The notes beneath the pieces were generated by a model, which worked only from the letters and a program-made list of their open reading frames with translations, made no database searches and had not been told where the DNA came from. From contig NZ_QKSD01000010.1 in NCBI RefSeq assembly GCF_003234085.1, positions 1 to 64,000 on the forward strand: a stretch of 64,000 nt of DNA, written 5' to 3'. Source of the stretch: Curtobacterium sp. MCPF17_052. GTDB lineage: Bacteria; Actinomycetota; Actinomycetes; Actinomycetales; Microbacteriaceae. This document shows positions 3,782-64,000 of this stretch, piece after piece; the stretch's first letter is position 1, and every line of letters starts with the position of its first letter. The position numbers and the translations under genes are program-made.

Positions 3782-4824
3782 GGCACCAGCTCCTGTCGGG
3801 AGGCCCGCTCCCCGCCCGACGGACCGGTCGCCGCCGTCCCGTCCACACGTCCGCCCCCACCGCCGTCCTGGTCGTCCGTGGCGGCGTGTCCGGTGAGACG
3901 GAGGAACACGTCGTCCAGCGTCGGGCGGCGCATCCCGGCGTCGTGCAGCGCGATGCCGGCGGCGCCGAGGTCGGCGAGGACCCGTTGCAGCGCCGCGGGC
4001 CCGGCGTCGACGGTGACGGCCCGGGTGCGACCGTCGCCGCTCGTCTCGACCTCCCCGCTGCCGTGCCGCCGGAGGACGGTGGTTGTGGCGTCCCCGTCGG
4101 CGGCGTCCACGAGGGTGACGACGACGCGGTGTCCGCCGACCTGGGCCTTGAGCTCGTCCGAGGTGCCCTCGGCGATGACCCGGCCGTCGTCGATGACGGC
4201 GATGTCGTCGGCGAGCTGGTCGGCCTCCTCGAGGTACTGCGTGGTGAGGAGCACCGTGGCTCCGCCGGCGACGAGGTCCTCGATGATGCCCCAGAGCGCG
4301 AGGCGGCTGCGCGGGTCGAGGCCCGTCGTCGGCTCGTCCAGGAACAGCACGCGCGGGTTCATCACGAGCGCCCCGGCGAGGTCGATCCGACGGCGCATGC
4401 CGCCGGAGAACCCCTTGACGGGGCGGTCGCCCGCTTCGGAGAGCCCGAACACGTCGATGAGCTCGCGTGCCCGGTCGCGCGCTGCTCGTCGGCCCAGGTG
4501 GTAGAGCCGCCCGATCATCTCGAGGTTCTCGAACCCGGTGAGGTTCTCGTCGACGGCGGCGTACTGCCCGGAGACGCCGATCGCGCGGCGGGTGCCCTGC
4601 GGGTCGGCGACGACGTCCATGCCGGCGACGGACGCCGACCCGGCGTCCGGTTCGACGAGGGTCGTGAGGACCTTCACGGTGGTGGTCTTCCCGGCCCCGT
4701 TCGGGCCGAGCAGTGCGGTGACGGTGCCCTCGGGCACCGAGAGGTCGAGGCCCGCCAGTGCGTGCACGGGCCCCGACTTGGATCGGTAGGTCTTGGTGAG
4801 GCCGGAGGCCTCGATGATGGCCAT
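3778..4824 (-). CDS. ABC exporter ATP-binding protein (DrrA-like)
   Basis: The 348-residue ATPase carries Walker A GPNGAGKTT (residues 40-48), the signature FSGGMRRR, Walker B VLFLDEPTTG and a switch-region TTQYLEEAD. The C-terminal DUF4162-like extension, after about residue 220, is usual for DrrA proteins. A clear AAGGAG Shine-Dalgarno lies 5 bases before the ATG at 4824. It is the first gene of a two-gene exporter operon. The last 25 residues form a low-complexity Gly/Asp tail with ERASRQ, encoded by a copy of the recurrent GGGAGGCCCG element (3798-3807). Confidence 0.9.
   Translation of the reverse strand: MAIIEASGLTKTYRSKSGPVHALAGLDLSVPEGTVTALLGPNGAGKTTTVKVLTTLVEPDAGSASVAGMDVVADPQGTRRAIGVSGQYAAVDENLTGFENLEMIGRLYHLGRRAARDRARELIDVFGLSEAGDRPVKGFSGGMRRRIDLAGALVMNPRVLFLDEPTTGLDPRSRLALWGIIEDLVAGGATVLLTTQYLEEADQLADDIAVIDDGRVIAEGTSDELKAQVGGHRVVVTLVDAADGDATTTVLRRHGSGEVETSGDGRTRAVTVDAGPAALQRVLADLGAAGIALHDAGMRRPTLDDVFLRLTGHAATDDQDGGGGGRVDGTAATGPSGGERASRQELVP
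3798..3807 (+). repeat. Copy of the interspersed GGGAGGCCCG element, inside a gene
   Basis: An exact copy lies in the C-terminal linker codons of the DrrA-like ATPase, read as E-R-A-S-R. This part of the protein is not conserved in the family. Confidence 0.6.
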
Positions 4825-4911
4825 GTCGCTCCTTCGTGACCGGCTGCGTCCCTCGGGGCCGACCGGACACGCGGACCCGGTCGACCGGGCGGCGGGAGCG
4901 ACGGACGTCAC

Positions 4912-5700: not shown

Positions 5701-5796
5701 GGTGTGCTCCTTCGTCGCGGGCACCGTGCCCACTGGCGCCCACGCTAGGCACCGTCGGCCGGGTCTGACTGTGCGTGCGCTCAGAAGCCGCCGTGC

Positions 5797-5814
5797 GCCT
5801 CCCGTCCGGGAGGC
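5797..5814. terminator. Short hairpin made of paired interspersed elements
   Basis: GCCTCCCG and CGGGAGGC form a perfect 8-bp stem with a 2-base gap, just downstream of the GDPD/IMPase gene (stop at 5825, minus strand). An exact GGGAGGCCCG copy is at 5808-5817. Probably a rho-independent-like terminator without a U-tract. Confidence 0.5.
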
Positions 5815-5824
5815 CCGTCCACCG

Positions 5825-7411
5825 TCAGGACGTCGGCCCGGCCCCGGTGACCGCTGCGGTCCAGACCGCGAACAGCTCGTCGGCCGCGCCCGGGTGCGCC
5901 GCCAGGAACGGCACACCGGCGGGCGGGAAGTCCTGCACCGGCCCGTCGAGGGTCAGCACGACCCCGCCGGCTTCGTGCACGAGGAGCACGGCGGCACCGT
6001 GGTCGACCGGGTCGAACGCCGGCATGCACGCCCCGATCCCCCGGCCGGCGGCGACCTGGGCGATCGTCAGGGTGCCTGAGCCGGGGACGCGCACGGAGCA
6101 GGACCGGGCGGCGAGCGCGTCGACGAACACACCGAAGCCGGGCCACGGGTGGGCACCGTCGAGCTCGGTCCCGACCACGGCGCCGGCGAGGGCGCGCGGG
6201 GCGTCGTCGAGGCGAAGCACCCGGTCGCGTTCGGTCGCTCCCCGGCCGCGGCGGGCTTCCAGGACCTCGCCGCGCCAGGGGTCCACGACGACGCCGACCA
6301 GGGGGCGCCCGGACCGGGTCAGGCACAGCGAGGTGCTCGTCCACGGCACGCCGTTCGCCAGGTTCCGGCTGCCGTCGACGGGGTCCAGGTACCACCGGTG
6401 CTTGTCCCCGGGGGCGACGCCGTACTCCTCGCCGACGAAGCCGTGCTCGGGGAACGCCGCCCGGACGCGACCGCGGACGTGCTGCTCGATCGACCGGTCC
6501 AGTGCCGTGACCTGCGCTCCGGTGTCTCCGGCGTCCGGGTCGACGCGGTGTTCGCGGGTGAAGGCGATGACCTCGTGCGCGATCCGGTGTGCCAGGGTCT
6601 GGGCGCGGCCGGCGACCTCGGCCTCGCCGGGCTCCCGCACCGGCCGCGACCAGCCGTCCCGCTCGGCGGCGGCCAGGACGGCGTGCACCGTGGCGACGTC
6701 CTCGGTGAGGACCAGGTCCGCGCCGAGCCGGGTCGCCCAGCGGGTCGGCTCCGGGTCGTCGACGGTCCACACCGCGACGCACAGCCCGAGGGCGTGTGCC
6801 GCGCGGACGGTGGCGGGCGTGAGGAAGGCGACGTCGAGGTCGAGTGTCGAGGGCCCGAGCTCCTGCACGTCGGCGGCCGTCGGCGCTCGGAGGGTGTCCC
6901 AGGGCATCCAGACGTCGGCCTCGGGCAGCAGCGCCCGGACGGCCTGCATCGCAACCAGCGTCCCGCGCCAGGCCACCCGCACGGCGTCGTCCAAGCCCGT
7001 GCCTGCTCCCGCCACGGTGCGCACCGCGGCCGCGGCATCGGCCGGGTCCGTGAGCCCGACCACCAGTGCAGCGGAGCACCCCTCGAGGCGCTCGAGCACG
7101 GCGTCGAGGCGTGGGATGCGGTCGAGCCCGTTGCCCAGCCGTGCGACGTCGCACCACGGCGTCGCGGAGACCCGGCGGCCGTCGCCCCACATCCGGCCGA
7201 GGGTCTCGTCGTGCAGCAGCACGGCGACCCCGTCGGCGGTGACCCGGACGTCGACCGCGACGAGGTCAGCACCGAGGGCCTCGGCGACGGCGACGGCCGG
7301 CAGCGTGTTCTCGCGGCGGACACCCGGGGCTCCACGCGAGGCGACGATCCGGGGCGGACGGAGGCCGGGCCTCCCGGTCGTCGTCGGTGCCGGGGTCTCG
7401 AGCGTCGTCAC
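5825..7411 (-). CDS. Fused GDPD-like / inositol monophosphatase family protein
   Basis: The 528-residue protein joins two domains. Residues ~20-250 resemble glycerophosphodiester phosphodiesterase (RRENTLPA, VRVTADGVAVLLHDE). The usual AHRG is ASRG (S26), the usual ELD is AVD (A52), and the EIK-like strand has no Glu, so this domain is probably inactive. Residues ~265-528 are an inositol-monophosphatase-family domain with intact metal sites: GEE (327-329), LDPVDGSRN (342-350) and a C-terminal PVDHGAA..EAGG motif. It may dephosphorylate an inositol or sugar phosphate. The GTG start at 7411 lies 105 bp from the divergent DUF3054 gene. No clear Shine-Dalgarno; a CACGAT six bases upstream could be a weak leaderless -10. 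Confidence 0.82.
   Translation of the reverse strand: MTTLETPAPTTTGRPGLRPPRIVASRGAPGVRRENTLPAVAVAEALGADLVAVDVRVTADGVAVLLHDETLGRMWGDGRRVSATPWCDVARLGNGLDRIPRLDAVLERLEGCSAALVVGLTDPADAAAAVRTVAGAGTGLDDAVRVAWRGTLVAMQAVRALLPEADVWMPWDTLRAPTAADVQELGPSTLDLDVAFLTPATVRAAHALGLCVAVWTVDDPEPTRWATRLGADLVLTEDVATVHAVLAAAERDGWSRPVREPGEAEVAGRAQTLAHRIAHEVIAFTREHRVDPDAGDTGAQVTALDRSIEQHVRGRVRAAFPEHGFVGEEYGVAPGDKHRWYLDPVDGSRNLANGVPWTSTSLCLTRSGRPLVGVVVDPWRGEVLEARRGRGATERDRVLRLDDAPRALAGAVVGTELDGAHPWPGFGVFVDALAARSCSVRVPGSGTLTIAQVAAGRGIGACMPAFDPVDHGAAVLLVHEAGGVVLTLDGPVQDFPPAGVPFLAAHPGAADELFAVWTAAVTGAGPTS
7366..7375 (-). repeat. Copy of the interspersed element in the fusion gene
   Basis: An exact copy near the N terminus of the GDPD-like fusion, read as G-R-P-G in the disordered segment before the first domain. 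Confidence 0.55.
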
Positions 7412-7516
7412 CGTCCCATCGTGGGAGCGCGGCCCGAACACCACGTGACGCGGCGGTGAACAGCCGGGGGCCACGCGGCCGGTGGCCATGTGGTCGGGGC
7501 CTGAGAGGATGGCGCC

Positions 7517-8592: not shown

Positions 8593-8598
8593 CCTGCA

Positions 8599-8604
8599 AG
8601 CGTA
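8599..8604 (-). promoter_or_regulatory. -10 box, leaderless hypothetical gene
   Basis: TACGCT on the minus strand, 6 bases before the ATG at 8592. Confidence 0.55.
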
Positions 8605-8638
8605 GGCGGCGCGCCCGGGATCCGCCCCGAGGCGCGAC

Positions 8639-8648
8639 GGGAGGCCCG
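8639..8648 (+). repeat. Intergenic copy of the interspersed element
   Basis: A single unpaired copy between two minus-strand genes, 12 bases past the DUF3097 stop codon. Confidence 0.6.
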
Positions 8649-8659
8649 GTGCGCGACCG

Positions 8660-9598
8660 TCAGACCGGCTCGGTCACGAAGTCGATCAGCTCCTCGACCC
8701 GACCGAGCAGCTGTGGTTCGAGGTCGGCGAAGGTCCGCACCTGCCCCAGGATCCGCTGCCACGCCCGGGCGATGTCGGCCTGCTCGGCGTGCGGCCACCC
8801 GAGTGCCTGGCAGATGCCGGCCTTCCACTCGATCGACCGTGGGATCGTCGGCCAGGCCTGCAGTCCGACACGTGCCGGCTTCACCGACTGCCAGACGTCG
8901 ACGAACGGGTGTCCGACGACGAGCACGTGTGCGCCCCACTTCCCGCGCATCACGGCATCGGCGGAACGGGACTCCTTCGAGCCCGGCACGAGGTGGTCCA
9001 CGAGGACGCCGACCCGGCGCTCCCGGGTCGGGCGGAAGTCGTCCAGCACGTCGGCCAGGTTGTCGACGCCGGACAGCTCCTCGACGACGACCCCCTCGAC
9101 GCGGAGGTCCGCGCCCCACACCTTCTCGACGAGTTCGGCGTCGTGCTTGCCCTCGACCATGATCCGGCTCGGCAGGGCCACCCGGGCGCGCTGCTGCTCG
9201 ACGGCGAACGACCCGGACGCGGTGCGGAGGCGGCCACCGTCGGAGGCATGCCGGACCGCCGGGGCCGCTCCGGGCCTCCCGGCCGTGGCGGTGCCGGCGG
9301 TGGAACGAGCCGGCGGCGCGGCCGCGGCGGACCGACCGACCGGTGCCTGTGGACGCGTCAGGGTGACCAGTTCACCCTCGAGCAGGAACTGACCGACGAA
9401 GGGGAAGGCGCGGACGCGACCCTTCCAGTCCTCGAGCGAGACGTTGCCGGCTTCGAGGCCGACCACGGCGCCAGCCCACCCGGAGTCCGGGTCCTCGAGC
9501 ACCATGTCACGCTCGAGCGGCACCTGCCGCACCTTTTGCACACCCCGCGAGCGCCAGTCGCCCGAGAGCACGTCACTGCCGTACCGGTCCTCGTCCAC
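8660..9598 (-). CDS. DUF3097 family protein
   Basis: The 312-residue protein starts DEDRYGSDVLSGDWR, the usual N terminus of actinobacterial DUF3097. It has an N-terminal beta-rich part (about 1-90), an Ala/Pro-rich linker (about 90-135), and a C-terminal domain with SRIMVEGKHDAELVEKVWG. That motif and the later acidic VGVLVDHL resemble a TOPRIM fold, but this is my inference. Function unknown; no signal or membrane segment. The GTG start at 9598 is chosen because it starts family-like sequence and has TACGCT 7 bases upstream. The linker includes a GRPG read from an interspersed element copy. Confidence 0.82.
   Translation of the reverse strand: MDEDRYGSDVLSGDWRSRGVQKVRQVPLERDMVLEDPDSGWAGAVVGLEAGNVSLEDWKGRVRAFPFVGQFLLEGELVTLTRPQAPVGRSAAAAPPARSTAGTATAGRPGAAPAVRHASDGGRLRTASGSFAVEQQRARVALPSRIMVEGKHDAELVEKVWGADLRVEGVVVEELSGVDNLADVLDDFRPTRERRVGVLVDHLVPGSKESRSADAVMRGKWGAHVLVVGHPFVDVWQSVKPARVGLQAWPTIPRSIEWKAGICQALGWPHAEQADIARAWQRILGQVRTFADLEPQLLGRVEELIDFVTEPV
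9271..9280 (-). repeat. Copy of the interspersed element inside the DUF3097 linker
   Basis: An exact copy read as A-G-R-P-G in a low-complexity Ala/Pro linker that separates the two domains. Confidence 0.55.
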
Positions 9599-9605
9599 CC
9601 GCACG

Positions 9606-9611
9606 AGCGTA
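9606..9611 (-). promoter_or_regulatory. -10 box, leaderless DUF3097 gene
   Basis: TACGCT on the minus strand with a 7-base spacer to the GTG at 9598. Confidence 0.55.
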
Positions 9612-9677
9612 CTGTCGACGGGCGTCCGGACAACGTCGACCGGCCGGTCCCCCATCATCCCGACGGAAGGCACACCC

Positions 9678-12668: not shown

Positions 12669-12709
12669 GCTCCATCCTGTCACCGGATCGCTGACGTGTC
12701 CCCAGGATG

Positions 12710-12749
12710 GACGGGAGGCCCGTGGCGTTCTCGCCACGGGCCTCCCGTC
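12710..12749. terminator. Perfect 18-bp hairpin made of two interspersed elements
   Basis: Arms 12710-12727 and 12732-12749 are perfectly complementary around a TTCT loop and each contains a GGGAGGCCCG copy. It lies 32 bases downstream of the gatB stop and should terminate the gatCAB transcript. Confidence 0.85.
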
Positions 12750-18646: not shown

Positions 18647-18747
18647 AGGAGACGGGCTGGGTCCACTCTGGTGCGCGTGGTCGCGCGACTGCGCAGCCGC
18701 ACAGGATGCGCTCGGCCTCGCCTCCGGCACGTGCTCCGACCCGGCCT

Positions 18748-18812
18748 GGAGGCCCGGATCACCGGCCCTGCACGGGTCCGGTCACGATCCGGTCACGTCT
18801 GACGGGCCTCCC
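18748..18812. repeat. Two opposed interspersed element copies between PBP and hydrolase genes
   Basis: GGAGGCCCG (18748-18756) and the exact element CGGGCCTCCC (18803-18812) are complementary over 9 bases across a 46-base loop. They lie just downstream of the alpha/beta hydrolase stop (18836, minus strand) and may form its terminator. The 46 bases between hold no gene. Confidence 0.5.
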
Positions 18813-22766: not shown

Positions 22767-22808
22767 GCGAGGTCAGGCGTGCGAGGTCAGGCGTGCGAGG
22801 TCAGGCGG
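22767..22808. repeat. Three-copy 14-bp tandem repeat overlapping the mnmA stop
   Basis: GCGAGGTCAGGCGT repeats twice exactly plus a third, nearly complete copy that includes the mnmA stop codon (22801-22803). Confidence 0.75.
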
Positions 22809-23948: not shown

Positions 23949-25286
23949 ATGACGAGCACCACGAATGACGCCTTCGACCTCCGGGGCGTCCTGCTGTCCG
24001 GGTTCCTGCCCGCCGCGCTCTTCGCGATCGGCGAGGGTGCCATCATCCCGATCATCCCGATCGCGGCGGACTCCCTCGGGGCGAGCCTGGCGATCGCCGG
24101 GTTCGTCGCCTCGCTGATCCTGGTCGGCGAACTCATCGGGGACGTCCCCTCGGGCGTCGTCGTGGCCAGGATCGGCGAACGCAACGCCATGATCGGCGCC
24201 GCGGTGGTCTCGGTCGTCGGGCTGCTGGTCTGCACCGTCGCCCCGAACCCCCTCGTCCTGGCCGTCGGCGTCTTCCTGGTGGGCCTGTCCACCGCCGTCT
24301 TCGCCCTGGCCCGGCACGCGTACATGACGACCGCGATCCCGTTGCGGATCCGGGCCCGGGCGCTCTCGAGCCTCGGCGGCGTCTTCCGCTTCGGCTACTT
24401 CGTCGGTCCGTTCCTGGCGGCCGGGGTCATCCACCTCACCGGCACGACCCAGAGCGCGTTCTGGGTGCACGTCGTCTGCTGCCTCGGCGCTGCCGTGGTG
24501 CTGCTCGTCATCCGCGACCCCGCGACGGGCGTCCGCGGCCTGCAGCGGCCGACCCGGGCCTCCCGGCCGACGGCGACCGACGCGGCAGCGACCGACGCGA
24601 CGGCGACCGACGTGTCAGCGACGACCGACGGCACGACGCGACCGGGCGAGCTCGAGGGCGAACAGTTCGTCGAGGAGGAGTCCCACGGTCTCTTCCAGAC
24701 CATCCGCGCGCACCACCGGGTGCTCGTGCGTCTGGGCAGCGGGGCGGCGCTGATCGGTGCGATGCGCGCCGGACGCCAGGTGATCCTGCCGCTCTGGGCG
24801 GTCAGCGTCGGTCTGGACGACTCCACCGCCGCTCTCGTCATCGGCATCGCCGGCGCCGTCGACTTCGCGCTCTTCTACACGAGCGGGCAGATCATGGACC
24901 GCTGGGGACGCCTGGCGAGCGCCCTGCCCTGCATGCTCGGCCTGAGCATCTGCTACTTCCTGCTGGCCTGGAGCGACCACCTCGACGCCCGCGTCGGCTG
25001 GTTCGTCGCGGTCGCGATGGCGATGTCCCTGGCGAACGGCGTCGGCTCCGGGATCCTCATGACGCTCGGCGCGGACCTGGCACCCGCGGACCGGCCCGCA
25101 CCGTTCCTCGGGGCGTGGCGGTTCACCGGCGACCTCGGGTCCGCCGCGGCCCCGCTCGTGATCTCCGGCGTCACCGCGCTCGCGACGATCGCGGTCGCGA
25201 GCGGCGTGATGGGGGTGCTCGGCCTGGTCGGCGCGGGCATCCTGCTCCGGTACGTGCCGCGGTACCTGCCCCGCACGCTGCGCTGA
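23949..25286 (+). CDS. MFS transporter
   Basis: The 445-residue integral membrane protein has about twelve transmembrane segments in two halves. They are split by a cytoplasmic loop (about residues 195-245) of T-A-T-D repeats and an acidic patch ([12 protein letters not shown]). The A-like motif is [15 protein letters not shown] (residues 65-79). It looks like a drug:H+ antiporter-type exporter; the substrate is unknown. The loop contains R-A-S-R encoded by an interspersed element copy. The stop codon lies in the first unit of a downstream tandem repeat array. Confidence 0.88.
24555..24564 (+). repeat. Copy of the interspersed element in the MFS loop
   Basis: An exact copy, read as T-R-A-S-R-P, in the variable central loop of the transporter. 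Confidence 0.55.
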
Positions 25287-25410
25287 CCGGGTCCGTCCTC
25301 GCCCGCACGCTGCGCTGATCGGGTCCGTCGCGCGGTCGCATGGTGCGATGACCGGGTCCGTCGCGCGATCGCATGGTGCGATGACCGGGTCCGTCGCGCG
25401 GTCGCGCCCC
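25269..25410. repeat. Decaying ~33-bp tandem array after the MFS gene
   Basis: About four to five units share a GACCGGGTCCGTC core with a 30-33 base period (cores near 25285, 25317, 25350 and 25383). The first unit includes the MFS stop codon, and CCGCACGCTGCGCTGA is duplicated at 25270 and 25302. No spacers of CRISPR type are present. Confidence 0.75.
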
Positions 25411-25472: not shown

Positions 25473-25482
25473 GGGAGGCCCG
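25473..25482 (+). repeat. Intergenic copy of the interspersed element
   Basis: An exact unpaired copy between the tandem array and the tRNA-Leu promoter. Confidence 0.6.
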
Positions 25483-25526: not shown

Positions 25527-25608
25527 GCGGGAGTGGTGGAATTGGTAGACACGCAGGATTTAGGTTCCTGTGCTCCGGCGTGAGGGTTCGAGTCCCTCCT
25601 TCCGCACC
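25527..25608 (+). tRNA. tRNA-Leu (anticodon UAG)
   Basis: A class II tRNA with a long variable arm. The acceptor 5' strand GCGGGAG pairs with CTTCCGC (one G-U). The D-arm contains GGTGGAATTGGTAGAC, the anticodon stem CAGGA/TTCCTG carries loop TTTAGGT with anticodon TAG, and the T-arm is AGGGTTCGAGTCCCT. Discriminator A at 25606 followed by CC; the final A of CCA is not encoded. Confidence 0.95.
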
Positions 25609-28994: not shown

Positions 28995-29004
28995 CGGGCC
29001 TCCC
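28995..29004 (-). repeat. Intergenic copy of the interspersed element
   Basis: An exact copy within the longer CGGGCCTCCCGTCCGG, in the divergent region between murI and pncB; it would lie upstream of both promoters. Confidence 0.6.
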
Positions 29005-30698: not shown

Positions 30699-30808
30699 GT
30701 GGGCGGAGCGGCTGCAGCGCGTGGGCCGACCGGCTGCAGCGCGTGGGCGGGCCGGCTCCAGCGCGCGGGCAGAGCGGGTGCAGCGCGTGGGCGGACCGGC
30801 TGCGGTGG
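30699..30808. repeat. Five-copy 22-bp tandem repeat
   Basis: Five diverged units of about GTGGGCGGACCGGCTGCAGC plus two bases run from 30699 to 30808 and stop two bases before the stop codon of the ABC permease gene (30810). Ala/Pro-like hypothetical translations of this array are not a gene. Confidence 0.85.
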
Positions 30809-32381: not shown

Positions 32382-33562
32382 TCCATGCTCTCTGCGACGG
32401 GACGACCGCCGGCGAGTTCGACGAACTTGTCCTCGAGGCTGCGACGACCGCGGACCTGCGCCATGGTGCCGGCGGCCAGGACCTTGCCGCCGACGATGAT
32501 CGCCACGGAGTCGCACGTGCGCTGGACGAGTTCCATCGAGTGGCTGGAGAGCACGACGGTGCCGCCGCCCGCGGTGTAGCGCCGCAGGATGTCGGTGATG
32601 GTCGTCGCGCTGACCGGGTCGACGGACTCGAACGGTTCGTCGAGCACCAGCACGCGTGGCGAGTGGATGAGCGTGGCGGCCAGGGCGATCTTCTTCGCCA
32701 TGCCCATCGAGTAGTCCGCGACCGGTCGACCGAGGGCGTCGCCGAGGCCGAACGCCTCGGCCAGGTCGGCGCTGCGGCTCCGGGCGGTCTTGCCGTCGAG
32801 TCCGCGCAGCGTCGCGGAGTAGAAGAGCATCTGCGCGCCGGTCAGGCGGTCGAACAGGCGGAGCCGGTCCGGCAGGACGCCCATCGCCCGCTTGGCGGCG
32901 GTCGGGTCGGCCCAGACGTCGTGGTCGAGCACGGTCACGGTGCCGGCGTCCGGGCGCAGGAGGCCCGTGAGGACCGAGAGCGTCGTCGTCTTGCCGGCGC
33001 CGTTCGGGCCGACGACCCCGAAGATCGAGCCCTTCCGGATCTCCAGGTCGACGTCGTCCACGGCGAGCGTCTGGCCGTACCGCTTGACGAGGCCGTCGGC
33101 GCGGAGCACGACGGGCTGCTGCGGCACGTTCGGCCGACCGGTCGGGCGCTTCGTCGTGGTCGAGCCGGGCGCGCCGCCCGTGCCGTTCCGGGATGCCGAC
33201 GTGCCGGAGCCGCCCCGGGCCTCCCGGCCGTCCGGCTCGTCACCCGTGGGGGCCGAGCCCTGCGGCCGGGTCGCCCGGCCGGAACGCTTGTCCCGCTTCT
33301 TCCCCTGGCGAGGCTGTGGCGTCGTGCTCGACGACGACCCGGCGGGCAGGACGTCCGCCCCCGCCGTCGTCTCCGAGCCGGTCCTGTCGTCCGTCATGTC
33401 GTCACCCGCGAGCGCGCCGTACGCACCCGTGTCCCCCGTGTCGTCGTGGTCGTCGTCGCCCGTCCCCAGGGCGACGGTCGTGCCGTCGTCGTCCGCGTCG
33501 GCCGTCCACGTCGCGTCCGACGTGCTGTAGACGTCGTCGTTTCCCGTTGTTCCTGCCGACAC
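32357..33562 (-). CDS. ABC exporter ATP-binding protein with long disordered N terminus
   Basis: The ATPase domain (about residues 150-401) has Walker A GPNGAGKTT (185-193), a DYSMGMAKK signature and VLVLDEPFESVDP. It is preceded by 150 residues of acidic then Gly/Ser/Thr/Arg-rich sequence (DDDHDDTGDTG, SSSSTTPQPRQGKK), not part of the usual family. The GTG at 33562 is supported by TACGGT 7 bases upstream; an internal ATG at about residue 56 would give a shorter form. The linker contains G-R-E-A-R-G read from an interspersed element. The partner permease follows with a 25-base overlap. Confidence 0.85.
   Translation of the reverse strand: MSAGTTGNDDVYSTSDATWTADADDDGTTVALGTGDDDHDDTGDTGAYGALAGDDMTDDRTGSETTAGADVLPAGSSSSTTPQPRQGKKRDKRSGRATRPQGSAPTGDEPDGREARGGSGTSASRNGTGGAPGSTTTKRPTGRPNVPQQPVVLRADGLVKRYGQTLAVDDVDLEIRKGSIFGVVGPNGAGKTTTLSVLTGLLRPDAGTVTVLDHDVWADPTAAKRAMGVLPDRLRLFDRLTGAQMLFYSATLRGLDGKTARSRSADLAEAFGLGDALGRPVADYSMGMAKKIALAATLIHSPRVLVLDEPFESVDPVSATTITDILRRYTAGGGTVVLSSHSMELVQRTCDSVAIIVGGKVLAAGTMAQVRGRRSLEDKFVELAGGRPVAESMEWLHSFSG
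33216..33225 (-). repeat. Copy of the interspersed element in the ABC ATPase linker
   Basis: An exact copy read as R-E-A-R in the disordered N-terminal region; the frame differs from copies read as R-A-S-R. Confidence 0.55.
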
Positions 33563-38074: not shown

Positions 38075-38106
38075 GGACGGACGGGAGGCGCGCCTCCCGT
38101 CCGTCC
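38075..38106. terminator. Perfect 32-bp palindrome
   Basis: Arms 38075-38090 and 38091-38106 are exactly complementary with no loop. The core is GGGAGGCGCGCCTCCC, a variant of the interspersed element. It follows the glycosyltransferase stop (38115, minus strand) and precedes the TagF-like gene. Confidence 0.7.
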
Positions 38107-40917: not shown

Positions 40918-41090
40918 GTGATCCTCGGGGTCCGGCGGGCGCGACACGACCTGGTGGGGCCGCCCCGCAGAGCGGACCGAGCCTATCAAGCACCCGAGGC
41001 GGACACCTGGCCGCACCCTGGACCGGCGCGGGAGCAGATCCCGTCGAGCCGGTCCGGCGGTACTGGCCGGTCCCGCCCGTGCCCCGGACG

Positions 41091-41131
41091 GACGGGAGGC
41101 CCGCCACCGGACCGGTGGCGGGCCTCCCGTC
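41091..41131. terminator. Perfect 20-bp-arm hairpin made of two interspersed elements
   Basis: Arms 41091-41110 and 41112-41131 are exactly complementary with a single base between. Each contains a GGGAGGCCCG copy. It lies 15 bases past the HtrA-like gene stop codon (41146, minus strand). Confidence 0.85.
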
Positions 41132-41145: not shown

Positions 41146-43116
<1,971 letters not shown>

Positions 43117-43337
43117 GCTGGACGTGCTCCTTTCAAGCCCCTGCAGTCTCCACCACCGACCTGGGCGGTCATGATGGCGCACCTGCGAGGTGGCCAAGCC
43201 GATCGTATGCGTCCGCTGTGTGCACGGTCCGCGCAGGAGGCCCGCGGCTCCGGGGCCGGCACGGGGCGGACGCTAGGTTGGTGGCCAGCGTGCGCCGCGC
43301 CTCCCGGCCGGTGCCGCGACGTCGAGAGGGGTCGCTC

Positions 43338-47142: not shown

Positions 47143-47196
47143 GGTGACGGACGGGAGGCCCGGTGCCAGCTGGCACCGGGCCTCCCGTCCGTCACC
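47143..47196. terminator. Perfect 54-bp palindrome of interspersed elements
   Basis: Arms 47143-47169 and 47170-47196 are exactly complementary over 27 bases with no loop, each containing a GGGAGGCCCG copy. It begins 28 bases after the aldo-keto reductase stop codon. Confidence 0.85.
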
Positions 47197-50625: not shown

Positions 50626-50645
50626 CCTCCCGTCCGGCCGGGAGG
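50626..50645. terminator. Short hairpin with interspersed element
   Basis: CCTCCCG (50626-50632) pairs with CGGGAGG (50639-50645); an exact GGGAGGCCCG copy is at 50640-50649. It follows the PDZ/Lon-type protease stop (50670, minus strand). Confidence 0.5.
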
Positions 50646-50669
50646 CCCGTCCCCCGTCCGACCGGACGC

Positions 50670-53326: not shown

Positions 53327-53355
53327 GGACGGGAGGCGCGTCCCGCCTCCCGTCC
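53327..53355. terminator. Hairpin after the metalloprotease-like gene
   Basis: GGACGGGAGGCG (53327-53338) pairs perfectly with CGCCTCCCGTCC (53344-53355) around CGTCC, a variant of the interspersed element. It begins 7 bases after the stop codon. Confidence 0.75.
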
Positions 53356-56944: not shown

Positions 56945-57943
56945 ATGGCGGGATCGCAGTTCACTCTAGCCGCGTTGGCGACCACGGCCGTGCCCGGACT
57001 GGTCCTGACCGGCACACGCACGCTCGGCTCGGTGGCCGGTGGCGACTACGAGTCGGCCGTCGTCCGCGACGTCGACGGACGGTCCTCGGCGATCCGCCGG
57101 CCCCGGAACCAGCGGGCGGAAGCGCGTCAGTCCGCCGACCTCGTCGCGATCCGCGCCCTGAGCGCCGGGATCCGCACGCGCCTCCCGTTCGCCGTCCCGG
57201 AGTACCGCGGCCAGGCACCCATCGGGTCGACCCGAGCCATCCTGACCTCCTACGTCGAGGGCGAGCACCCCGCGCTCCGTGACCTGACCGACCGGCCCGA
57301 GCTCGCCACCAGCGTCGGCCGGGCGATCGCCGCACTGCACGTCCTGCCGACGAGCTTCGTCACCGACGCCGGCCTGCCGTCCCTCACCCCCTTCGAGGTG
57401 CTGCGGTCCGCGGTGTCCGTGATGGACCGGGCCGTCGCGACGAAGCTGGTGCCGGACGCGCTCCGGGAACGCTGGGAGGGCGCCGCCCGCGACCAGCAGC
57501 TGTGGCAGTTCACGCCCACGGTCGTGCACGGGTCGCTCGGCCTCGACTCGATCCTGGTCCGCGGCGACGACGTCACCGGGGTCCTCGGCTGGGGCGAGCT
57601 GCGTCTCGGCGACCCGGCGAAGGACCTGGCGTGGGTGCTCGCCGGACGCCGTGAGGCGTTCGACACCGTCCTCAGCGCCTACACCGCCGGTGGCGGCGGC
57701 CGTGACCGGCAGCTCGGGCAGCGTGCACGCGTGCACCACGAACTCGAGACGGCGCAGTGGCTGCTGCACGGTGTGCAGGTCAAGAGCACCGAGGTCGTCG
57801 ACGACGCCGTCGCGATGATGCACCGCCTCGCCGAGGCCGTGCACGCCCCGTCCGCCGCGCCGCTGCAGGCGGTGTCGCCGGAGACGATGGAGATCGGCGA
57901 GGTCGAGCAGCTGCTCTCGTCCACCGAGCGCCGCCACAGCTGA
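56945..57943 (+). CDS. Aminoglycoside/macrolide phosphotransferase homologue lacking catalytic residues
   Basis: The 332-residue protein has the APH-fold regions: an N-terminal lobe (SVAGGDYESAVVRDVDGRSSAIRR), ILTSYVEGEHPA hinge and IAALHVLP. The catalytic loop HGDxxxxN reads HGSLGLDS (H195, S197, S202), and the IDW metal-binding motif reads VLGWGE (G215). Both catalytic Asp residues are missing, so it is probably a pseudo-kinase. Function unknown. A leaderless start at 56945; convergent with the AdnB-like gene and divergent from nudC. Confidence 0.85.
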   Translation: MAGSQFTLAALATTAVPGLVLTGTRTLGSVAGGDYESAVVRDVDGRSSAIRRPRNQRAEARQSADLVAIRALSAGIRTRLPFAVPEYRGQAPIGSTRAILTSYVEGEHPALRDLTDRPELATSVGRAIAALHVLPTSFVTDAGLPSLTPFEVLRSAVSVMDRAVATKLVPDALRERWEGAARDQQLWQFTPTVVHGSLGLDSILVRGDDVTGVLGWGELRLGDPAKDLAWVLAGRREAFDTVLSAYTAGGGGRDRQLGQRARVHHELETAQWLLHGVQVKSTEVVDDAVAMMHRLAEAVHAPSAAPLQAVSPETMEIGEVEQLLSSTERRHS

Positions 57944-57994: not shown

Positions 57995-60900
57995 TCAGCC
58001 GATCGCCTCGCGCCAGGCGCGCTCCAGTCCGGCACGATCGAGCAGCGACGACGGTCGGACCTCGAGGTCGTCGGCGACGAAGTAGAACACCGCGTCGACG
58101 TCCTCGATCGGCCGACCGGTGAACTCGGCGTACGCGACGCGGTACAGCGCGAGCTGCAACTGCCGGCGGTCCAGGTCGTCGGCACCGCTCGGGGCCTTGC
58201 CGGTCTTCCAGTCGACGACCTCGATGCGTCCGTCGATCTCGTAGACGGCGTCGAGCTTGCAGACGACGCTGTGCCCGAGGAACGGGATGTGGATCTCGCG
58301 CTCGACCTCGACCGGGGTCAGCCCCGCCCACCGTGAGCGGGCGAAGGTGTCCTGGAAGTCGGCCAGCCGTCGGGCGTCGTCGTCGCTCACCGGGACCTCA
58401 CCAGCGGAGGCCGGACCGCCCGCGGTCGTCTCGTCCGGATCGGCGTCGAGTTCGCCGTCCCACGCGTCGAAGCCGCCGTCCCATCCGCCGAGCGCCGCCG
58501 GTGCCCCACCCCGTGCGCGCTGCTCGACCCACTGGTGGAACAGGGTGCCGAGGCGCGTCGCGCGGTACGGCCGCTCGGGCATCGGCCGACGCAGCCGCTC
58601 GGCCACCCGGTCCGGTTCGCCGAGGTAGTCCTTGAAGCCGGACGCCGGTACCCGGTGCGGGACGACGACCTGGTGCGCGGCCGACCGGGAGGCCCGGCGT
58701 TCCGCCAGCAGCAGCTCGATGTCCGCCGCGTAGCGACCGGCGGCACCGGGGTTCGCGTTCCGGACCCGGTCGGCGGCGGCGAGCACACGGGGCCCGCGGG
58801 AGCCGAAGGGCACGTGCGGCCACGTCTGCGACGCGCCCTGGTCCCCGAGCGGGTTCGTCTCGTGCGCGGTGCCGTCCGGGATGCGGCCCGCGTCGAGCAC
58901 TCCGGCGTCAACCAGGTCGTGCAGGTACCGGCTCGGTGCGGTCGGCTTCACGCCGGTCGACCACGACGACCCGCTGACGAGCAGCTCGTGCTTCGCCCGG
59001 GTCAGCGCGACGTAGGTGAGGCGGCGTTCCTCGTCCTCGTTCCGGGCCTTGACCTCGTCCTTGAAGGCGTCGATCGCGTCGACCACGTCCTTCTGGGTCT
59101 CCTGCCCGCGCCAGTGCAGGCGGGGCAGTTCGTCGGCGTCGCCGCGGAACTCGTACGGCAGCCGACCGAAGCCGAGCCAGCCGGTCGAGCCCTCCTGTGG
59201 CCGGGCCGGCAGTCCGCCCTCGACCATGCGGGGCACGGCGACGGCGTCCCACTCGAGCCCCTTCGACCCGTGGATGGTGAGGATCTGGACGGTGCCGCCC
59301 TCGGGTTCCTCGGACCGCGGCCCCATGTCGTCGCGACGGGCGGCGGCGTCGATCCACCCGAGGAACGCCCCGAGGTCGGCCCGGTCGTCGGTCTGCACGA
59401 AGCCGCTGAGCTCGTCGACGAAGGCGTCGAGGTACGCCGAGCCGCCCTGCTCGTGCGCGGTGACCTCGATGTCCAGCCGCATCTCCTGCACGACGAGCGT
59501 GACGAAGTCGACCAGGTCGCCGCCGGCACGGGCTCGCAACGAGGACAGCTGCGCCCCGAGGGCCCGCATGCGCTCCCGTCCGGCCGGGCTGATGTCGGCG
59601 AGCGCGGAGTGGTCGTCCGGTGCGGTCGTGACGAAGTCGAGGGCGTCGACGACGGACCCGTGCTCCCCCGCCGCGACCGATGCCCGGAACGCCGCCGTGA
59701 CCTCGTCGTCGAGCCGTCGGTGCGTGTGGTCGCGGCCGAACAGCCAGCGGGCCAGGCCGTGCAACGCGACGATGTCCGCTGCCCCGATCCGCCACCGGGC
59801 ACCGGCGAGCAACCGGATGAGGTCGTTGCCCGCGGCCGGGTCGTGCAGCACGCGGAGGCACGCCACCAGGTCGACGATCTCCGGTCGCTGCAGCAGTCCG
59901 CCGGTCCCGAGCACGTGGTACGGCACGGCCCGGGCCCCGAGCGCCGCCGTGAAGGCAGACAGGTCCTTCCGGGCGCGGAGCAGCAGCGCCATCGACCCGC
60001 CGGGGTTCCGTGCCCGGTGGTCCGCGAACCAGGCGGCCACCGCGTCGGCTTCTTCGGGCAGGGTCTCCGGGAACACCGCGCTGACCGTGCCGCGATCGGC
60101 GCCGGGCCGCGGTGCGAGTCGTTCCACCTGGACCTCGGACGCGCTCGAGAGCGGCTCGACGACGGCGTTCGCGGCGGCGAGCACGTCGACCGGGTTCCGC
60201 CAGCTGGTCGACAGGGCGTAGGTGACGACCGGGTCGCCCGAGGCGTCCCCGAAGTCGGCGGGGAAGCGCGCGAGGTTCGCGGCACTCGCCCCGCGGAAGC
60301 CGTAGATGGACTGGTGCGGGTCCCCGACCGCCATCACCGGGTGGTCCCGGAACAGCCGTGCCAGGAACCGGGTCTGCACGACCGAGGTGTCCTGGTACTC
60401 GTCGAGCAGCACCACGGCGAACCGCGAGCGCAGGTCGGCGGCCACCCGCGGAGCAGCGTCGGCGGCGGCGAGCGCCAGGGCGATCTGGTCGGAGAACTCG
60501 ACGAACCCGCGGTCGACCTTCTGGCGGCGGAACTCCTCGACCAGGTCGGCGAGCGGCTCCAGGGACCCGACCGCGGCGACGGCATCCGTCACGGCCTTGT
60601 AGGGCGTGCCGCGGCTCGAGCCGGGCAGCTCGAGCAGCTCCCCGAAGTCGATCGAGAAGCGGCGGAGGTCGGCCGGGTCGACGAGGTGCTCGGACGCCGC
60701 CCCGGCGAGCGCGACGACCGCGGCGGTGATCGTGTCGACGTTGCGGTCGAGGCCCGCCAGCCGGTCGTCACGCGCGCTGACGACGACCCGTCGGGCGAGC
60801 TGCCACGCGGAGGGTTCGGTGAGCACCTGGGATTCGCCGTCCCGCCCGACGAGCAGGGCGTTCTCACGGAAGACGGCGTTCGCGAAGGCGTTGTAGGTGG

Positions 60901-61330: not shown

Positions 61331-64000
61331 CAGGTGACCTCGCCCACCACGTGGATCCGGCACTCGGTGCCGGTGCGTGCCCGGTCGCAGTGGTCGTCGA
61401 CGTTGGCCAGGAACGTCCCTCCCGCCATGCCGCGTGCCACGGTGTGCAGGCGTTCCCGGTAGGCCTCGCGTGACTCCGGGTCGAGGGCCCGCTGCGTCCG
61501 CTCGGAGTACGCGTGCGCGCCCTTCGGGTTCTGCACGAACACGAGCCGGGCGTCCGTGGTCTCCGCACCCTCCGGCACCCCCTCGACCGCCCCGTCCGCG
61601 ACGGCGAGCTGGTAGGCAGCGAGCTGCGGGTGTCCGGGCATGTCGTTCTTCTCGCTCGGCATGGACCGGCCGGTCTTCAGGTCGACGATGCTGATCCGGC
61701 CGTCCGGGTCGACCTCGATGCGGTCGATGCTCCCGCGGACCCGGGCCGGCCCGGTCAGGAGCGCGAACGAGGCCTCGGCCCCGAGCACCCGTCGCCCCGC
61801 GCTGGCGAAGGTGCGCAGGTAGTCGCTGAGGCCCTCGATCATCCGTCGGGTGCGCGCGCGCTCGCGGTCCGCGACCCACGGCGACTCGAAGCTCAACTCG
61901 TCCCAGCGTTCCTCGACCCGGTGCCACAGCGACTCGACGTCCACGTCGGTGGCGTGCTCCATCGCCTCGTGCACGATCGTGCCGATGCCCATCGCCGGGC
62001 TCGGCGCACCGCCGCCGAACGTCTGCGCGAACCAGTGCACCGGGCACTCCTCGAAGGTGCCGATCCGGGAGGGGGACACCGCCACCGTCGGCGGGACCGG
62101 CTCGTCCCCGTCCTCGGGCACCACCGGTTCGGCAGCCAGGTCGACGAGGGGCGCGTCCGTCGTCGGTTCGACGATGCCGTACCAGTCGTCGGGGGCCGCG
62201 CCGGGCACGTCCTCGGCCGCGAGCCGGGCCAACGCGGAGGCCGCCTCGTGGTCCCCGGTCGCCACCACCCGGCGGCGGAGTGACCCGGCGAGCCCGCGCA
62301 GCGACAGCGGGTGCGCCGACGGTTGCCGGTCCGGCGGCACCGGCACCAGCCGCACGAAGGGCGAGGGTGACTCGTCGTCGTTCGCGACCGTGGCGATGAC
62401 GACCTGCGTCGTCGCGCGGGACACCGCCCGCGCGAACAGGCGGAGTTCGTCACCGATCACCGCGGCCCGGTCGTCCGTCGGCGAGTGCGGGATCCCCGCC
62501 GCCGCCCGCACCAGCCCGTCGGGGTCGAGCAGGCTGCCGCGGACGCGGGTGTTCGGCCAGACGCCGTCCTGGAGGCCCGTCACCACCACGACGTCGCACT
62601 CCAGTCCGACGGTGGCCGAGGGGGTGAGCACGCGGACCCGTCCGGCGGTCCGGTCCGGCCCGATCGAGTCCTCCGGCAGGTCCGCACCGAGGAGGTCGTC
62701 GACGAACACCCGGGCGGGGGCGTCCGGCGTCCGCTCGACGAAGCGCTTGGCGGCGGTGAACAGCCCGACGACCGCGTCGAGGTGCCGGTCCGCCTCGGCC
62801 GCGCCGACCCCGCCGGCGACGGACTGCGACCGCCACACACCGGCCAGACCGCTGCGTTCCCAGAGGCCCCAGAGGATCTCCTCGATGCTCGCACCCGACT
62901 CGGCGTCCTGCCGTGCGGTCACGAAGCTCGTCGCGAGCCGCATCGCACGTCGGGCGAAGGCGGCGTCGATCGTGGCCAGGCGTTCCGGGGCGCCCAGCGC
63001 GTCGACGAGCAGTTCGTCGGCCGTGCGGGTCCCGCCACCGGCCAGCTCCTCACGGCGGAGCGCCAGGCGGAGCCGACGGATCGCCAGGGTGTCGAGCCCT
63101 CCCAGCGGCCCGGTCGCGAAGGACGTCGCCAGGTCGGCGTCGAGCGGCACGACCCCGAGCGCGACCGCGGCGGCGTCGACCAGCGTCCGGGACGCCGTGT
63201 CGTCACGCGGACGGGTCGGCGCGGCGCCGGCCGTGGCGGGGACCTCCGCCACCGAGAGCGCCCGGACCAGTTCGGGGATCGCCGCACCGCTGCGGGTGAC
63301 GACGACCATCCGGTGCCACGGGACGCCGTCGAGCAGCCGGTGTTCGCGGAGGCGTCTCGCCACCGCGGCCACCATCGCGGAACGGCTGGGTGCTTCGAGG
63401 TGCAGGACGGCGTCGGAGCGGCCACGGGCCTCCCGGGCGAGGGCTGCACGCTGGCGACCGGCGGCGGCCGTGCCGATGCGCCCGGTGATGCCGGTGACCA
63501 GCGCGCGGACCGGCGCGGCGTGCCGGTGCACGGTGCCGAGCACGATCTCCTGCGCGTGCGCGACCCCGAGGCGCGGGCCGAGCCGGCCGAGCACGTCGGG
63601 CACGCCGCCGCGGAACGCGGAGGCGGCGATGTCCGGGTCGCCGAACGCCACCACCTGCACACCGGAGCGGGCCAGGGCGCCGAGCAGCGCGATCTCGCCC
63701 TCGACGAGTTCCTGCACGTCGTCGACGACCACCAGGCGCAGTGCGGCGACGGCCGGTGGCAGTTCGCCGCGGAGCACGGCTGCGGTGGCGAAGGCGACGA
63801 GTTCGGCGGCGTCGAGGCTCGTCGACCGGAACGCCGTGACGGCCGCCCGGTACTCGTCCACGAAGTCGCCCGCGGCGCGCCACTCGGGGTGTCCGGTGTC
63901 GTCGCCGAGCTCCCGCATGTCGTCGGGTTCGATGCCGGCGGCGACCGCCCGCATCATGAGGTCGCGGAGCGCGGTCCGGAAACCCGCACGCTCGCGGACC
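61327..64000 (-). CDS. UvrD-like helicase/nuclease (AdnA-like), partial
   Basis: The window cuts this gene at its 5' end; the visible 891 codons read through to the window edge without a start decision. A degenerate helicase core is present (LVVVDDVQE as Walker B, RVRVLTPSATVGLECDVVVV, VWPNTRVRG). The C-terminal PD-(D/E)XK nuclease has FEECPVHWFAQ, RGSIDRIEV and VDLKTGR. Fe-S cysteines are C (EECPVHW), then DDHC and TEC with an Ala in the third position, so one of four is missing. It overlaps AdnB-like gene by 4 bases. Walker A is outside the window. Confidence 0.88.
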   Translation of the reverse strand, partial: VRERAGFRTALRDLMMRAVAAGIEPDDMRELGDDTGHPEWRAAGDFVDEYRAAVTAFRSTSLDAAELVAFATAAVLRGELPPAVAALRLVVVDDVQELVEGEIALLGALARSGVQVVAFGDPDIAASAFRGGVPDVLGRLGPRLGVAHAQEIVLGTVHRHAAPVRALVTGITGRIGTAAAGRQRAALAREARGRSDAVLHLEAPSRSAMVAAVARRLREHRLLDGVPWHRMVVVTRSGAAIPELVRALSVAEVPATAGAAPTRPRDDTASRTLVDAAAVALGVVPLDADLATSFATGPLGGLDTLAIRRLRLALRREELAGGGTRTADELLVDALGAPERLATIDAAFARRAMRLATSFVTARQDAESGASIEEILWGLWERSGLAGVWRSQSVAGGVGAAEADRHLDAVVGLFTAAKRFVERTPDAPARVFVDDLLGADLPEDSIGPDRTAGRVRVLTPSATVGLECDVVVVTGLQDGVWPNTRVRGSLLDPDGLVRAAAGIPHSPTDDRAAVIGDELRLFARAVSRATTQVVIATVANDDESPSPFVRLVPVPPDRQPSAHPLSLRGLAGSLRRRVVATGDHEAASALARLAAEDVPGAAPDDWYGIVEPTTDAPLVDLAAEPVVPEDGDEPVPPTVAVSPSRIGTFEECPVHWFAQTFGGGAPSPAMGIGTIVHEAMEHATDVDVESLWHRVEERWDELSFESPWVADRERARTRRMIEGLSDYLRTFASAGRRVLGAEASFALLTGPARVRGSIDRIEVDPDGRISIVDLKTGRSMPSEKNDMPGHPQLAAYQLAVADGAVEGVPEGAETTDARLVFVQNPKGAHAYSERTQRALDPESREAYRERLHTVARGMAGGTFLANVDDHCDRARTGTECRIHVVGEVTW
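63425..63434 (-). repeat. Copy of the interspersed element in the AdnA-like gene
   Basis: An exact copy read as A-R-E-A-R-G in a variable region. Confidence 0.55.

What the first reader, a model, noticed from the sequence alone, without database searches (positions are those of the whole stretch)
3798..63434. A recurrent GGGAGGCCCG element seeds terminator hairpins and also sits inside genes in several frames
By eye I count 20 exact copies of GGGAGGCCCG or its complement: 3798, 5808, 7366, 8639, 9271, 12713, 12737, 18803, 24555, 25473, 28995, 33216, 41094, 41119, 47153, 47177, 50640, 57978, 58687, 63425. Variants occur at 38083, 43229, 43298, 44543 and 53331. A rough composition estimate would give about two. 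Opposed copies form perfect hairpins at gene ends (12710-12749, 41091-41131, 47143-47196). Copies in genes lie in unconserved linkers and are read as RASR, REAR or GRPG, so frame is not selected. This pattern suggests a small dispersed palindromic unit that spreads and is kept as a terminator. I do not recall a description of it.
Basis: partly seen in the sequence, partly recalled or inferred. Interest (0 to 1): 0.75.

Follow-up and report, generated by a model that had tools for sequence, protein, structure and literature searches.

The report
Genome-wide DNA tag in Curtobacterium
A short DNA word is scattered through these bacteria, folds into gene-end hairpins when two copies face each other, and also sits singly inside genes where even silent positions are kept, which looks like the self-DNA tags of bacteria that import DNA, though import itself is untested here.

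Summary
In detail: 21 exact GGGAGGCCCG copies in the window (1 to 2 expected), 508 in this Curtobacterium draft genome against 28 for the reversed word. Among genomes searched the excess is confined to the genus; single-base variants ("dialects") dominate in some species. There are two populations. Facing pairs, mostly 27-28 nt apart, form hairpins enriched between convergent genes and rare between divergent ones: terminator-like, without a T-run, changing in place with mostly matching changes on both arms. Single copies lie inside genes and between them, on either strand, and share a longer consensus, CGG(C/A)C(G/T)GGAGGC-N-CG. Coding copies are 4 times (exact word) to about 10 times (longer motif) more frequent than synonymous shuffling predicts and largely follow the species' dialect. 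Against a sister species 24 of 26 aligned coding copies keep all nine fixed bases (44% for permuted words); third codon positions are 79/80 identical (79% in controls); a second region shows the same trend, weaker. A large Curtobacterium plasmid is nearly free of the word. Best reading: a self-DNA recognition word like Neisseria DUS or Haemophilus USS, with pairs used as terminators. Uptake is inferred; no receptor or assay is available.

The parts
12709..12749 (.). facing pair, 27-nt spacing: bidirectional terminator-like hairpin downstream of gatB (gene named by eye)
   Evidence: orthologous hairpins with mostly compensated arms in other species
41090..41131 (.). facing pair, 28-nt spacing: terminator-like hairpin
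   Evidence: both arms of the exact word kept in G020, G007, G019 of 7 relatives aligned
47143..47196 (.). facing pair, 27-nt spacing: 54-nt perfect palindrome between convergent genes
38079..38102 (.). overlapping facing pair GGGAGGCGCGCCTCCC with GGAC/GTCC ends
53327..53355 (.). close facing pair, 14-nt spacing, with GGAC/GTCC ends
5797..5817 (+). intergenic copy overlapping an inverted GCCTCCC: tight hairpin after a minus-strand gene
   Evidence: -18 kcal/mol, z -1.86, 11 of 200 shuffles as good: weak
8639..8648 (+). intergenic single copy
18803..18812 (-). intergenic copy; a weaker TGGAGGCCCG lies at 18747, 59 nt away
25473..25482 (+). intergenic single copy
28995..29004 (-). intergenic single copy in a divergent gap
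50640..50649 (+). intergenic single copy just after a stop codon
57978..57987 (+). intergenic single copy just after a stop codon
22756..22765 (+). intergenic single copy, variant GGGAGGCACG
43296..43305 (-). intergenic single copy, variant GGGAGGCGCG
57177..57186 (-). single copy, variant GGGAGGCGCG; inside a doubtful ORF, intergenic
2027..2036 (+). coding single copy, variant GGGAGGCTCG
   Evidence: nine fixed bases kept in 1 of 5 close relatives
2229..2238 (+). coding single copy in an acyl-CoA-synthetase-like gene (named by eye); may be held by the protein
   Evidence: kept in 5 of 5
3798..3807 (+). coding copy near the 3' end of an ABC-transporter-like gene (named by eye)
   Evidence: exact word in 0 of 5 aligned relatives, G025 differing within the word only at the free position
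7366..7375 (-). coding copy near a gene start
   Evidence: kept in 5 of 5 aligned relatives while flanks vary; left out of the silent-site test (within 60 nt of the gene end)
9271..9280 (-). coding copy inside a gene
   Evidence: kept in 7 of 7 close relatives and in 12 of the 14 genomes that align there, out of 27 examined, beside length-variable flanks
24555..24564 (-). coding single copy in an MFS-like gene (named by eye)
   Evidence: nine fixed bases kept in 7 of 7; the free position varies
33216..33225 (-). coding single copy, not conserved
   Evidence: kept in 0 of 5
58687..58696 (+). coding single copy in a helicase-like gene (named by eye)
   Evidence: kept in 1 of 6
63425..63434 (-). 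coding single copy
   Evidence: no orthologue aligned

Best explanation
Curtobacterium chromosomes carry a genus-specific, species-tuned DNA recognition word, CGG(C/A)C(G/T)GGAGGC-N-CG, roughly 900 copies per genome by extrapolation. SHOWN: the word is maintained at the DNA level, because it occurs on both strands, inside genes at 4 to 10 times the synonymous-shuffle expectation, with silent positions nearly frozen and one position free, and because coding copies largely follow the dialect of the intergenic copies. SHOWN BY STRUCTURE AND PLACE, not by RNA: inverted pairs, mostly at one spacing, form terminator-like hairpins at gene ends. INFERRED: the agent is a sequence-specific DNA receptor, most likely in natural transformation, so that related chromosomal DNA is preferred over foreign DNA. 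Copies arise by mutation and are kept because recombination with imported, word-bearing DNA favours them; shifts in receptor preference create dialects; pairs were co-opted as terminators. This is the arrangement known from DUS (Neisseriaceae) and USS (Pasteurellaceae).
For: Counts: 508 against 28; 59 other genus genomes 23-551, 39 genomes of other families of the order near the control word; 195 genomes of other genera of the family 0-19 for GGACGGGAGGC, against 404 here. Dialects: own 508/225/49 and G034 53/195/654 for GGGAGGCCCG/GGGAGGCGCG/TGGAGGCGCG; clustered on a 28-genome tree, 6 changes against 10.7 shuffled, as low in 0 of 200. Coding interior, observed/expected: own GGGAGGCCCG 26/6.3 and TGGAGGCGCG 2/2.5; G034 3/4.0 and 9/4.0, TGGAGGCACG 7/0.6; Fisher p 4e-5 on 26:2 against 3:9. 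A longer matrix trained on the sister species G007 and applied to own coding DNA: 44/4.6 at score 15, 32/2.0 at 17. Consensus beyond the seed in 78 coding copies of own plus G007: C -5 77%, G -4 74%, G -3 65%, C -2 63%, C -1 96%. Conservation against G007: 24 of 26 aligned coding copies keep nine fixed bases, controls 1068 of 2420, p 3e-7 (best single control word with 10 or more sites 0.75); third codon positions 79 of 80 against 6147 of 7819; free position 21 of 26; bases -5..-1 125 of 127; flanks 896 of 988. No significant gene-strand bias and no chromosome-half bias in G007 and G034. Plasmid pTCL: 4 copies of the two main words in 150 kb against 22 expected at the density of G012. ComEC and ComEA-type domains in 11 of 11 genomes, TadE in 10 of 11.
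Against: No uptake, receptor or competence datum exists here. comEC and comEA also occur in the four other-genus genomes searched, which hold the word at or near background, and G051, with 417 copies, has no TadE hit. In the window the conservation test replicates more weakly: 21 of 35 site-genome comparisons kept, from six sites (controls 1076 of 3746), third positions 72 of 82 (controls 63-78%); three of the six sites are mostly lost. Coding copies are as dense in C1 DNA that did not align to G007 (17 in about 142 kb) as in DNA that did (26 in 258 kb); if the unaligned part were recent imports, a self-tag should be rarer there (it may instead be rearranged). Spacing along 400 kb is random rather than even (CV 0.96, random 0.93). 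G007 also shows a mild coding excess of the other dialect's word (8/3.5). GGGAGGCTCG is enriched in own coding DNA (15/1.9) but seen once between genes, unexplained. Own C1 has 45 plus- against 65 minus-strand copies, a mild lean. 17 of 43 coding sites were dropped from the key test as unaligned.
Confidence: 0.5

Rival explanations
1. A chromosome-wide DNA-binding protein not tied to uptake (nucleoid organiser, segregation or repair guide, or a self-mark read by a defence system) recognises the word; facing pairs double as terminators.
For: All the DNA-level evidence fits equally well: silent-site conservation, both strands, dialects, scarcity on a plasmid. ComEC is not specific to the genus.
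Against: No bias by chromosome half, as polar guide sequences of the Chi or KOPS type would show (from 20 evenly spaced samples in each of G007 and G034; own contig C1 leans 45 to 65). The combination of terminator pairs and single copies in genes is described for uptake sequences.
Confidence: 0.3
2. The word is only a favoured terminator stem shared by many terminators; coding copies are chance, misannotation or decayed terminators.
For: Intergenic density is about nine times the coding density for the exact word (40 per 60 kb against 26 per 352 kb); pairs are enriched in convergent gaps; another hairpin can stand in its place after gatB.
Against: Coding copies at least 60 nt from gene ends exceed synonymous shuffles, largely follow the dialect and are nearly frozen at silent sites; singles are about as common in divergent gaps (7-14%) as in others (3-11%).
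Confidence: 0.13
3. A small palindromic mobile element (REP/BIME/MITE-like) that inserts and is kept as a terminator.
For: Spacing of 27-28 nt in 21 of 30 pairs; a 53-nt segment of one element matches many places (77-85 matches per genome to the 2-kb query, mostly that segment in the listed rows).
Against: Y1 transposase in 0 of 10 genomes; inner stems differ and co-vary; coding copies are single and change mostly by substitution.
Confidence: 0.05
4. Base composition or codon bias.
For: The window is about 72% G+C.
Against: Reversed-word control 28 against 508; synonymous shuffles; background level in the other genera and families searched.
Confidence: 0.02

Closest known systems
DNA uptake sequence (DUS) of Neisseriaceae and its dialects
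   Same: Short non-palindromic word in many copies, in genes and between them; inverted pairs form terminators; species dialects that follow phylogeny (PMC3630211 abstract; PMC1852404 passages and one section)
   Different: Gram-positive high-GC host; different word; fewer exact copies; more concentrated between genes; no receptor or uptake shown; spacing of pairs mostly fixed
Uptake signal sequence (USS) of Pasteurellaceae
   Same: Core word with a longer consensus; pairs in terminators; many intragenic copies (PMC2346458, part 1 of 3; PMC1852404 passages)
   Different: Unrelated word and phylum; the orientation bias within genes reported for USS is not significant here; uptake untested
Repeated intrinsic terminators of other actinobacteria (recalled: mycobacterial TRIT and T-less hairpins)
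   Same: Repeated GC-rich hairpins without a T-run after genes (recall only)
   Different: Conserved single copies inside genes and species dialects are not known to me for those (recall only)
REP/BIME palindromes with RAYT (Y1) transposases (recalled)
   Same: Dispersed palindromes, mostly outside genes
   Different: No Y1 transposase found; single coding copies under silent-site constraint

Membership tests
DUS/USS uptake sequences | Hundreds or more copies of a 9-12 bp word, far above expectation | tested here: met
   508 against 28 for the exact 10-mer; Kingsford et al. write 'generally >= 1,000 times', so the exact-word count is lower
DUS/USS uptake sequences | Single copies inside coding sequences above expectation | tested here: met
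   26 against 6.3; longer motif 44 against 4.6
DUS/USS uptake sequences | Inverted pairs form terminator hairpins | tested here: met
   (structure and position only, no RNA data)
DUS/USS uptake sequences | Species dialects in related species | tested here: met
DUS/USS uptake sequences | DNA carrying the word is preferentially taken up | not testable with these tools
   needs a transformation assay
DUS/USS uptake sequences | A DNA receptor specific for the word (ComP-like minor pilin in Neisseria) | not tested
   only general competence and pilus families were sought
REP elements with RAYT | Y1 (RAYT) transposase in the genome | tested here: not met
   0 of 10 genomes; the same search rings in 5 of 14 control genomes
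Canonical Rho-independent terminators | T-run after the hairpin | tested here: not met
   1 of 42 tails has 4 or more T in the 8 nt examined
Canonical Rho-independent terminators | Stable hairpin after stop codons, favouring convergent gaps | tested here: met
Chi/KOPS-type polar guide sequences | Strand bias with replication direction | tested here: not met
   +/- counts by half of the sampled chromosome: G007 25/21 and 31/37, G034 31/28 and 28/32; that position 1 is the origin is inferred by eye

The most novel reading that the evidence does not exclude
First uptake-sequence system outside Neisseriaceae and Pasteurellaceae: a Gram-positive genus uses a species-dialect DNA word as a self-tag for DNA import, read by an unknown surface receptor in an envelope without a Gram-negative outer membrane.
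Probability: 0.45. Interest if true: 0.88.

Novelty: new variant of a known kind. Interest (0 to 1): 0.74.

Why it matters
In what I read, uptake sequences are described only from two Gram-negative families. An independent case in actinobacteria would show that self-tagging of DNA evolves repeatedly and without an outer-membrane receptor, and would predict competence and gene-flow barriers (dialects) among Curtobacterium species. Even if uptake is wrong, a DNA word in hundreds of copies that freezes silent sites inside genes implies an unknown genome-wide DNA-binding system in the genus.

Tried and rejected
Chance and codon bias: rejected by the reversed word and synonymous shuffles. RNA-level function of coding copies: no significant strand preference relative to the gene (28/23, 18/10, 13/11). 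REP/RAYT mobility: no Y1 transposase in 10 genomes. Replication-polar guide: no bias in G007 and G034. Even spacing, an extra signature that some uptake sequences might show: not found. Rfam at gathering thresholds: only two tRNAs in the window. Phage records: the hairpin matches none of 50,697, but I did not check whether Curtobacterium phages are among them. Five plasmid records hold a similar hairpin: two Curtobacterium, two Microbacterium, one Rhodococcus; of the last three only one was opened. Literature, listings only unless said: the exact word occurs in 15 papers of the library, none on such a bacterial element by title or abstract opening; searches on Curtobacterium with terminator and palindrome (2 papers), Curtobacterium with natural transformation (4 papers), uptake sequence with Actinobacteria (none, 3 papers) and uptake sequence with Gram-positive/self-DNA/dialects (10 of 14 listed) showed no paper that by title or abstract opening describes uptake sequences in an actinobacterium. 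The Curtobacterium review PMC8929003 has no occurrence of 'competence', 'uptake', 'transformation' or 'recombination'. TerminatorNet (PMC13020248), which looked for frequent words in terminators, has no word beginning 'actino' or 'Curtobacterium' (passages).
Full report
WHAT WAS CLAIMED AND WHETHER IT IS THERE. GGGAGGCCCG occurs 21 times in the window, not 20 (2229 was missed); dinucleotide shuffles give 0.98 on average and 4 at most, Markov order 5 gives 2.29. In the genome to which the window belongs (3.54 Mb draft, 76.6% complete) there are 508 copies against 28 of the reversed word. The genus is Curtobacterium: of 8 named loci for a window gene, 6 bear Curtobacterium species or strain names, one is an uncultured Curtobacterium MAG and one a Microbacteriaceae bacterium; contigs of the same-genus genomes G025 and G048 have the lengths of two of those named records.

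WHO HAS IT. In one search, 59 other Curtobacterium genomes hold 23 to 551 copies of the exact word, while 39 genomes from other families of the order are near the level of the control word. In one search the overlapping word GGACGGGAGGC has 404 copies here, 167, 145 and 21 in three other Curtobacterium genomes, and 0 to 19 in the 195 genomes of other genera of the family. Among what was searched, the excess is a property of the genus.

DIALECTS. Samples of three genomes poor in GGGAGGCCCG are not without the feature: among their most over-represented words are GGGAGGCGCG and CTGGAGGCGCGG. Genome-wide counts of GGGAGGCCCG / GGGAGGCGCG / TGGAGGCGCG are 508/225/49 here, 169/567/86 in G036, 53/195/654 in G034 and 73/176/609 in G018. 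Some genomes (for example G013, G014, G030, G038) have low totals for these three words, so further dialects or a weaker system may exist. On a 28-genome gatB-gatA tree the dominant dialect needs 6 changes against 10.7 for shuffled labels, as low in 0 of 200: inherited, with several switches.

FACING PAIRS ARE TERMINATOR-LIKE HAIRPINS. In 464 kb of own sequence (window plus the first 400 kb of contig C1) the pair rule lists 30 pairs, 21 at a spacing of 27 or 28 nt, typically with outer arm GGAC-GGGAGGC-N-CG and inner stem bases that differ between elements but stay mostly complementary. Paired elements occupy 19%, 24% and 32% of convergent gaps and 1%, 2% and 4% of divergent gaps in the own genome, G007 and G034. 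There is no T-run (1 of 42 tails). Downstream of gatB, 16 of 28 genomes show a GGAGGC...GCCTCC hairpin by the search used, with mostly matching changes on both arms: CCCG, GCGC and CACG each with its complement, a T...A pair in G017, a C...G pair in G035; G025, G012 and G006 have a G-T wobble, G034 and G049 a mismatch. Twelve of 28 are listed as 'none' by that rule; by eye three of these (G002, cut by a contig end, G031, G050) still carry a related or partial hairpin and five (G010, G046, G018, G001, G033) a different hairpin. So these are inherited gene-end hairpins that change in place or are replaced.

SINGLE COPIES ARE A SECOND POPULATION. Of intergenic copies, 45 lie in a facing pair and 31 are single here; 57 and 26 in G007; 65 and 23 in G034. 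Singles are found in divergent gaps about as often as elsewhere, unlike terminators. Coding copies at least 60 nt from gene ends: 26 observed against 6.3 expected from synonymous codon shuffling for GGGAGGCCCG; 2 against 2.5 for TGGAGGCGCG. In G034 the same words give 3 against 4.0 and 9 against 4.0, and TGGAGGCACG 7 against 0.6. Among 11,803 coding 10-mers seen at least 8 times, overlapping forms of this motif fill six of the top seven places by excess. G007 agrees for its own word (14 against 4.8) but also shows 8 against 3.5 for TGGAGGCGCG, which does not fit a clean dialect picture.

LONGER CONSENSUS. Aligning the coding copies found by the 10-base seed alone (78 of own plus G007) shows bases outside the seed: C, G, G, C/A, C at positions -5 to -1 (77, 74, 65, 63+21 and 96%), and in G034 (28 copies) a C four bases after the seed (89%). 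Intergenic singles resemble them. Facing pairs have A at -2 in 86% of own plus G007 copies (52% in G034), where coding copies mostly have C (63% and 71%); intergenic singles lie between (C 48%, A 40%). A matrix trained on G007 singles finds 44 sites in own coding DNA at score 15 against 4.6 in shuffles, and 73 between genes. Scaled to the genome this is roughly 900 sites (my extrapolation; G007 is a sister species, so the training is not fully independent).

SILENT-SITE CONSERVATION, THE KEY TEST. Own contig C1 (400 kb) was aligned with the matching region of G007: 257,850 aligned bases, 92.0% identity. Of 43 coding copies of GGGAGGC-N-CG, 26 lie in ungapped alignment; 17 do not and were left out. 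24 of 26 keep all nine fixed bases; for 251 permuted words of the same nine letters it is 1068 of 2420 (44%), binomial p 3e-7; the best control word with at least 10 sites reaches 0.75. Third codon positions within the motif are identical in 79 of 80 cases (controls 6147 of 7819, 79%). The free position is kept in 21 of 26, the five preceding bases in 125 of 127, the flanks in 896 of 988. Protein constraint alone does not explain this; the DNA word is what is kept. In the window, an independent region against seven relatives, the trend is the same but weaker: 21 of 35 comparisons kept (controls 1076 of 3746), third positions 72 of 82, from six sites, of which 2229, 9271 and 24555 are always kept and 2027, 33216 and 58687 mostly lost. 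Site 9271 is kept in 12 of the 14 genomes that align there (27 examined), beside flanks that differ in length.

HOW IT PROBABLY WORKS. A word kept on either strand (28 sense, 23 antisense), in and between genes, without clear bias by chromosome half, tuned to the species, is most simply read as double-stranded DNA by a protein. The systems I know with this anatomy (words in genes, inverted pairs as terminators, dialects) are the uptake sequences of Neisseriaceae and Pasteurellaceae (PMC1852404, passages and one section; PMC2346458, first of three parts; PMC3630211, abstract; PMC13020248, passages). A survey of spaced motifs in 30 genomes notes that repeated sequence in terminators is unexpected and met it only in two Pasteurellaceae species (PMC5217627, passages). 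Curtobacterium has the general equipment: ComEC and ComEA-type domains in 11 of 11 genomes searched (7 of them Curtobacterium) and TadE in 10 of 11. In Micrococcus luteus, another actinobacterium, Flp/Tad pili are needed for transformation (PMC6370729, passages). But the same genes occur in other genera without the excess, so this is permissive only. A plasmid record of Curtobacterium sp. TC1 has 4 copies of the two main words in 150 of its 164 kb, against 22 expected at the density of G012, whose chromosome length matches that strain; the plasmid has lower G+C (65.6%), and order-3 Markov expectation is 1.75. Scarcity on an acquired replicon is expected for a self-tag, but also for any slowly accumulated chromosomal word; and coding copies are not rarer in the C1 DNA that failed to align to G007.

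WHAT IS NOT KNOWN. No uptake, no receptor, no RNA ends. The main rival, a non-uptake DNA-binding protein, explains the same facts; I put it at 0.3. My gene calls come from a simple codon-usage caller written here, and gene names in this report are by eye from translations, without family searches; coding and intergenic labels carry some error. The 60-nt trim and the silent-site test guard against it.

Noticed in passing
window 42529-42814: Tandem 18/36-bp repeat (CAGTACGGCCAG units, 14 exact copies in the array) encoding a QYGQ-rich low-complexity stretch near the N-terminus of a gene (41146-43116, minus strand) whose C-terminal part reads, by eye, like a HtrA-type serine protease with a PDZ-like end.
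   Followed up: partly
window 25272-25405: About four copies of a 33-bp tandem repeat starting at the end of an MFS-like gene, upstream of a tRNA-Leu at 25527.
   Followed up: no
window 30699-30803 and 22767-22807: Mostly intergenic tandem repeats: 22 bp x 4.8 and a perfect 14 bp x 2.9.
   Followed up: no
own genome, coding sequences (464 kb sample): Variant GGGAGGCTCG is strongly enriched inside genes (15 against 1.9 expected) but occurs once between genes.
   Followed up: no
gatB 3' region in G010, G046, G018 (L102, L103, L107) and in G001, G033 (L100, L101): A different hairpin (GGACACAGCACC... in three genomes, a GGGCAC-type one in two) stands where others have the GGAGGC hairpin: possibly further terminator families.
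   Followed up: no
L183 14979-15031 (Microbacterium sediminis plasmid); hit H2 in a Microbacterium paraoxydans plasmid: A 53-bp stretch 91-94% identical to part of the window's 47143-47196 palindrome on plasmids of another genus, suggesting DNA of Curtobacterium origin or an exchanged terminator.
   Followed up: partly
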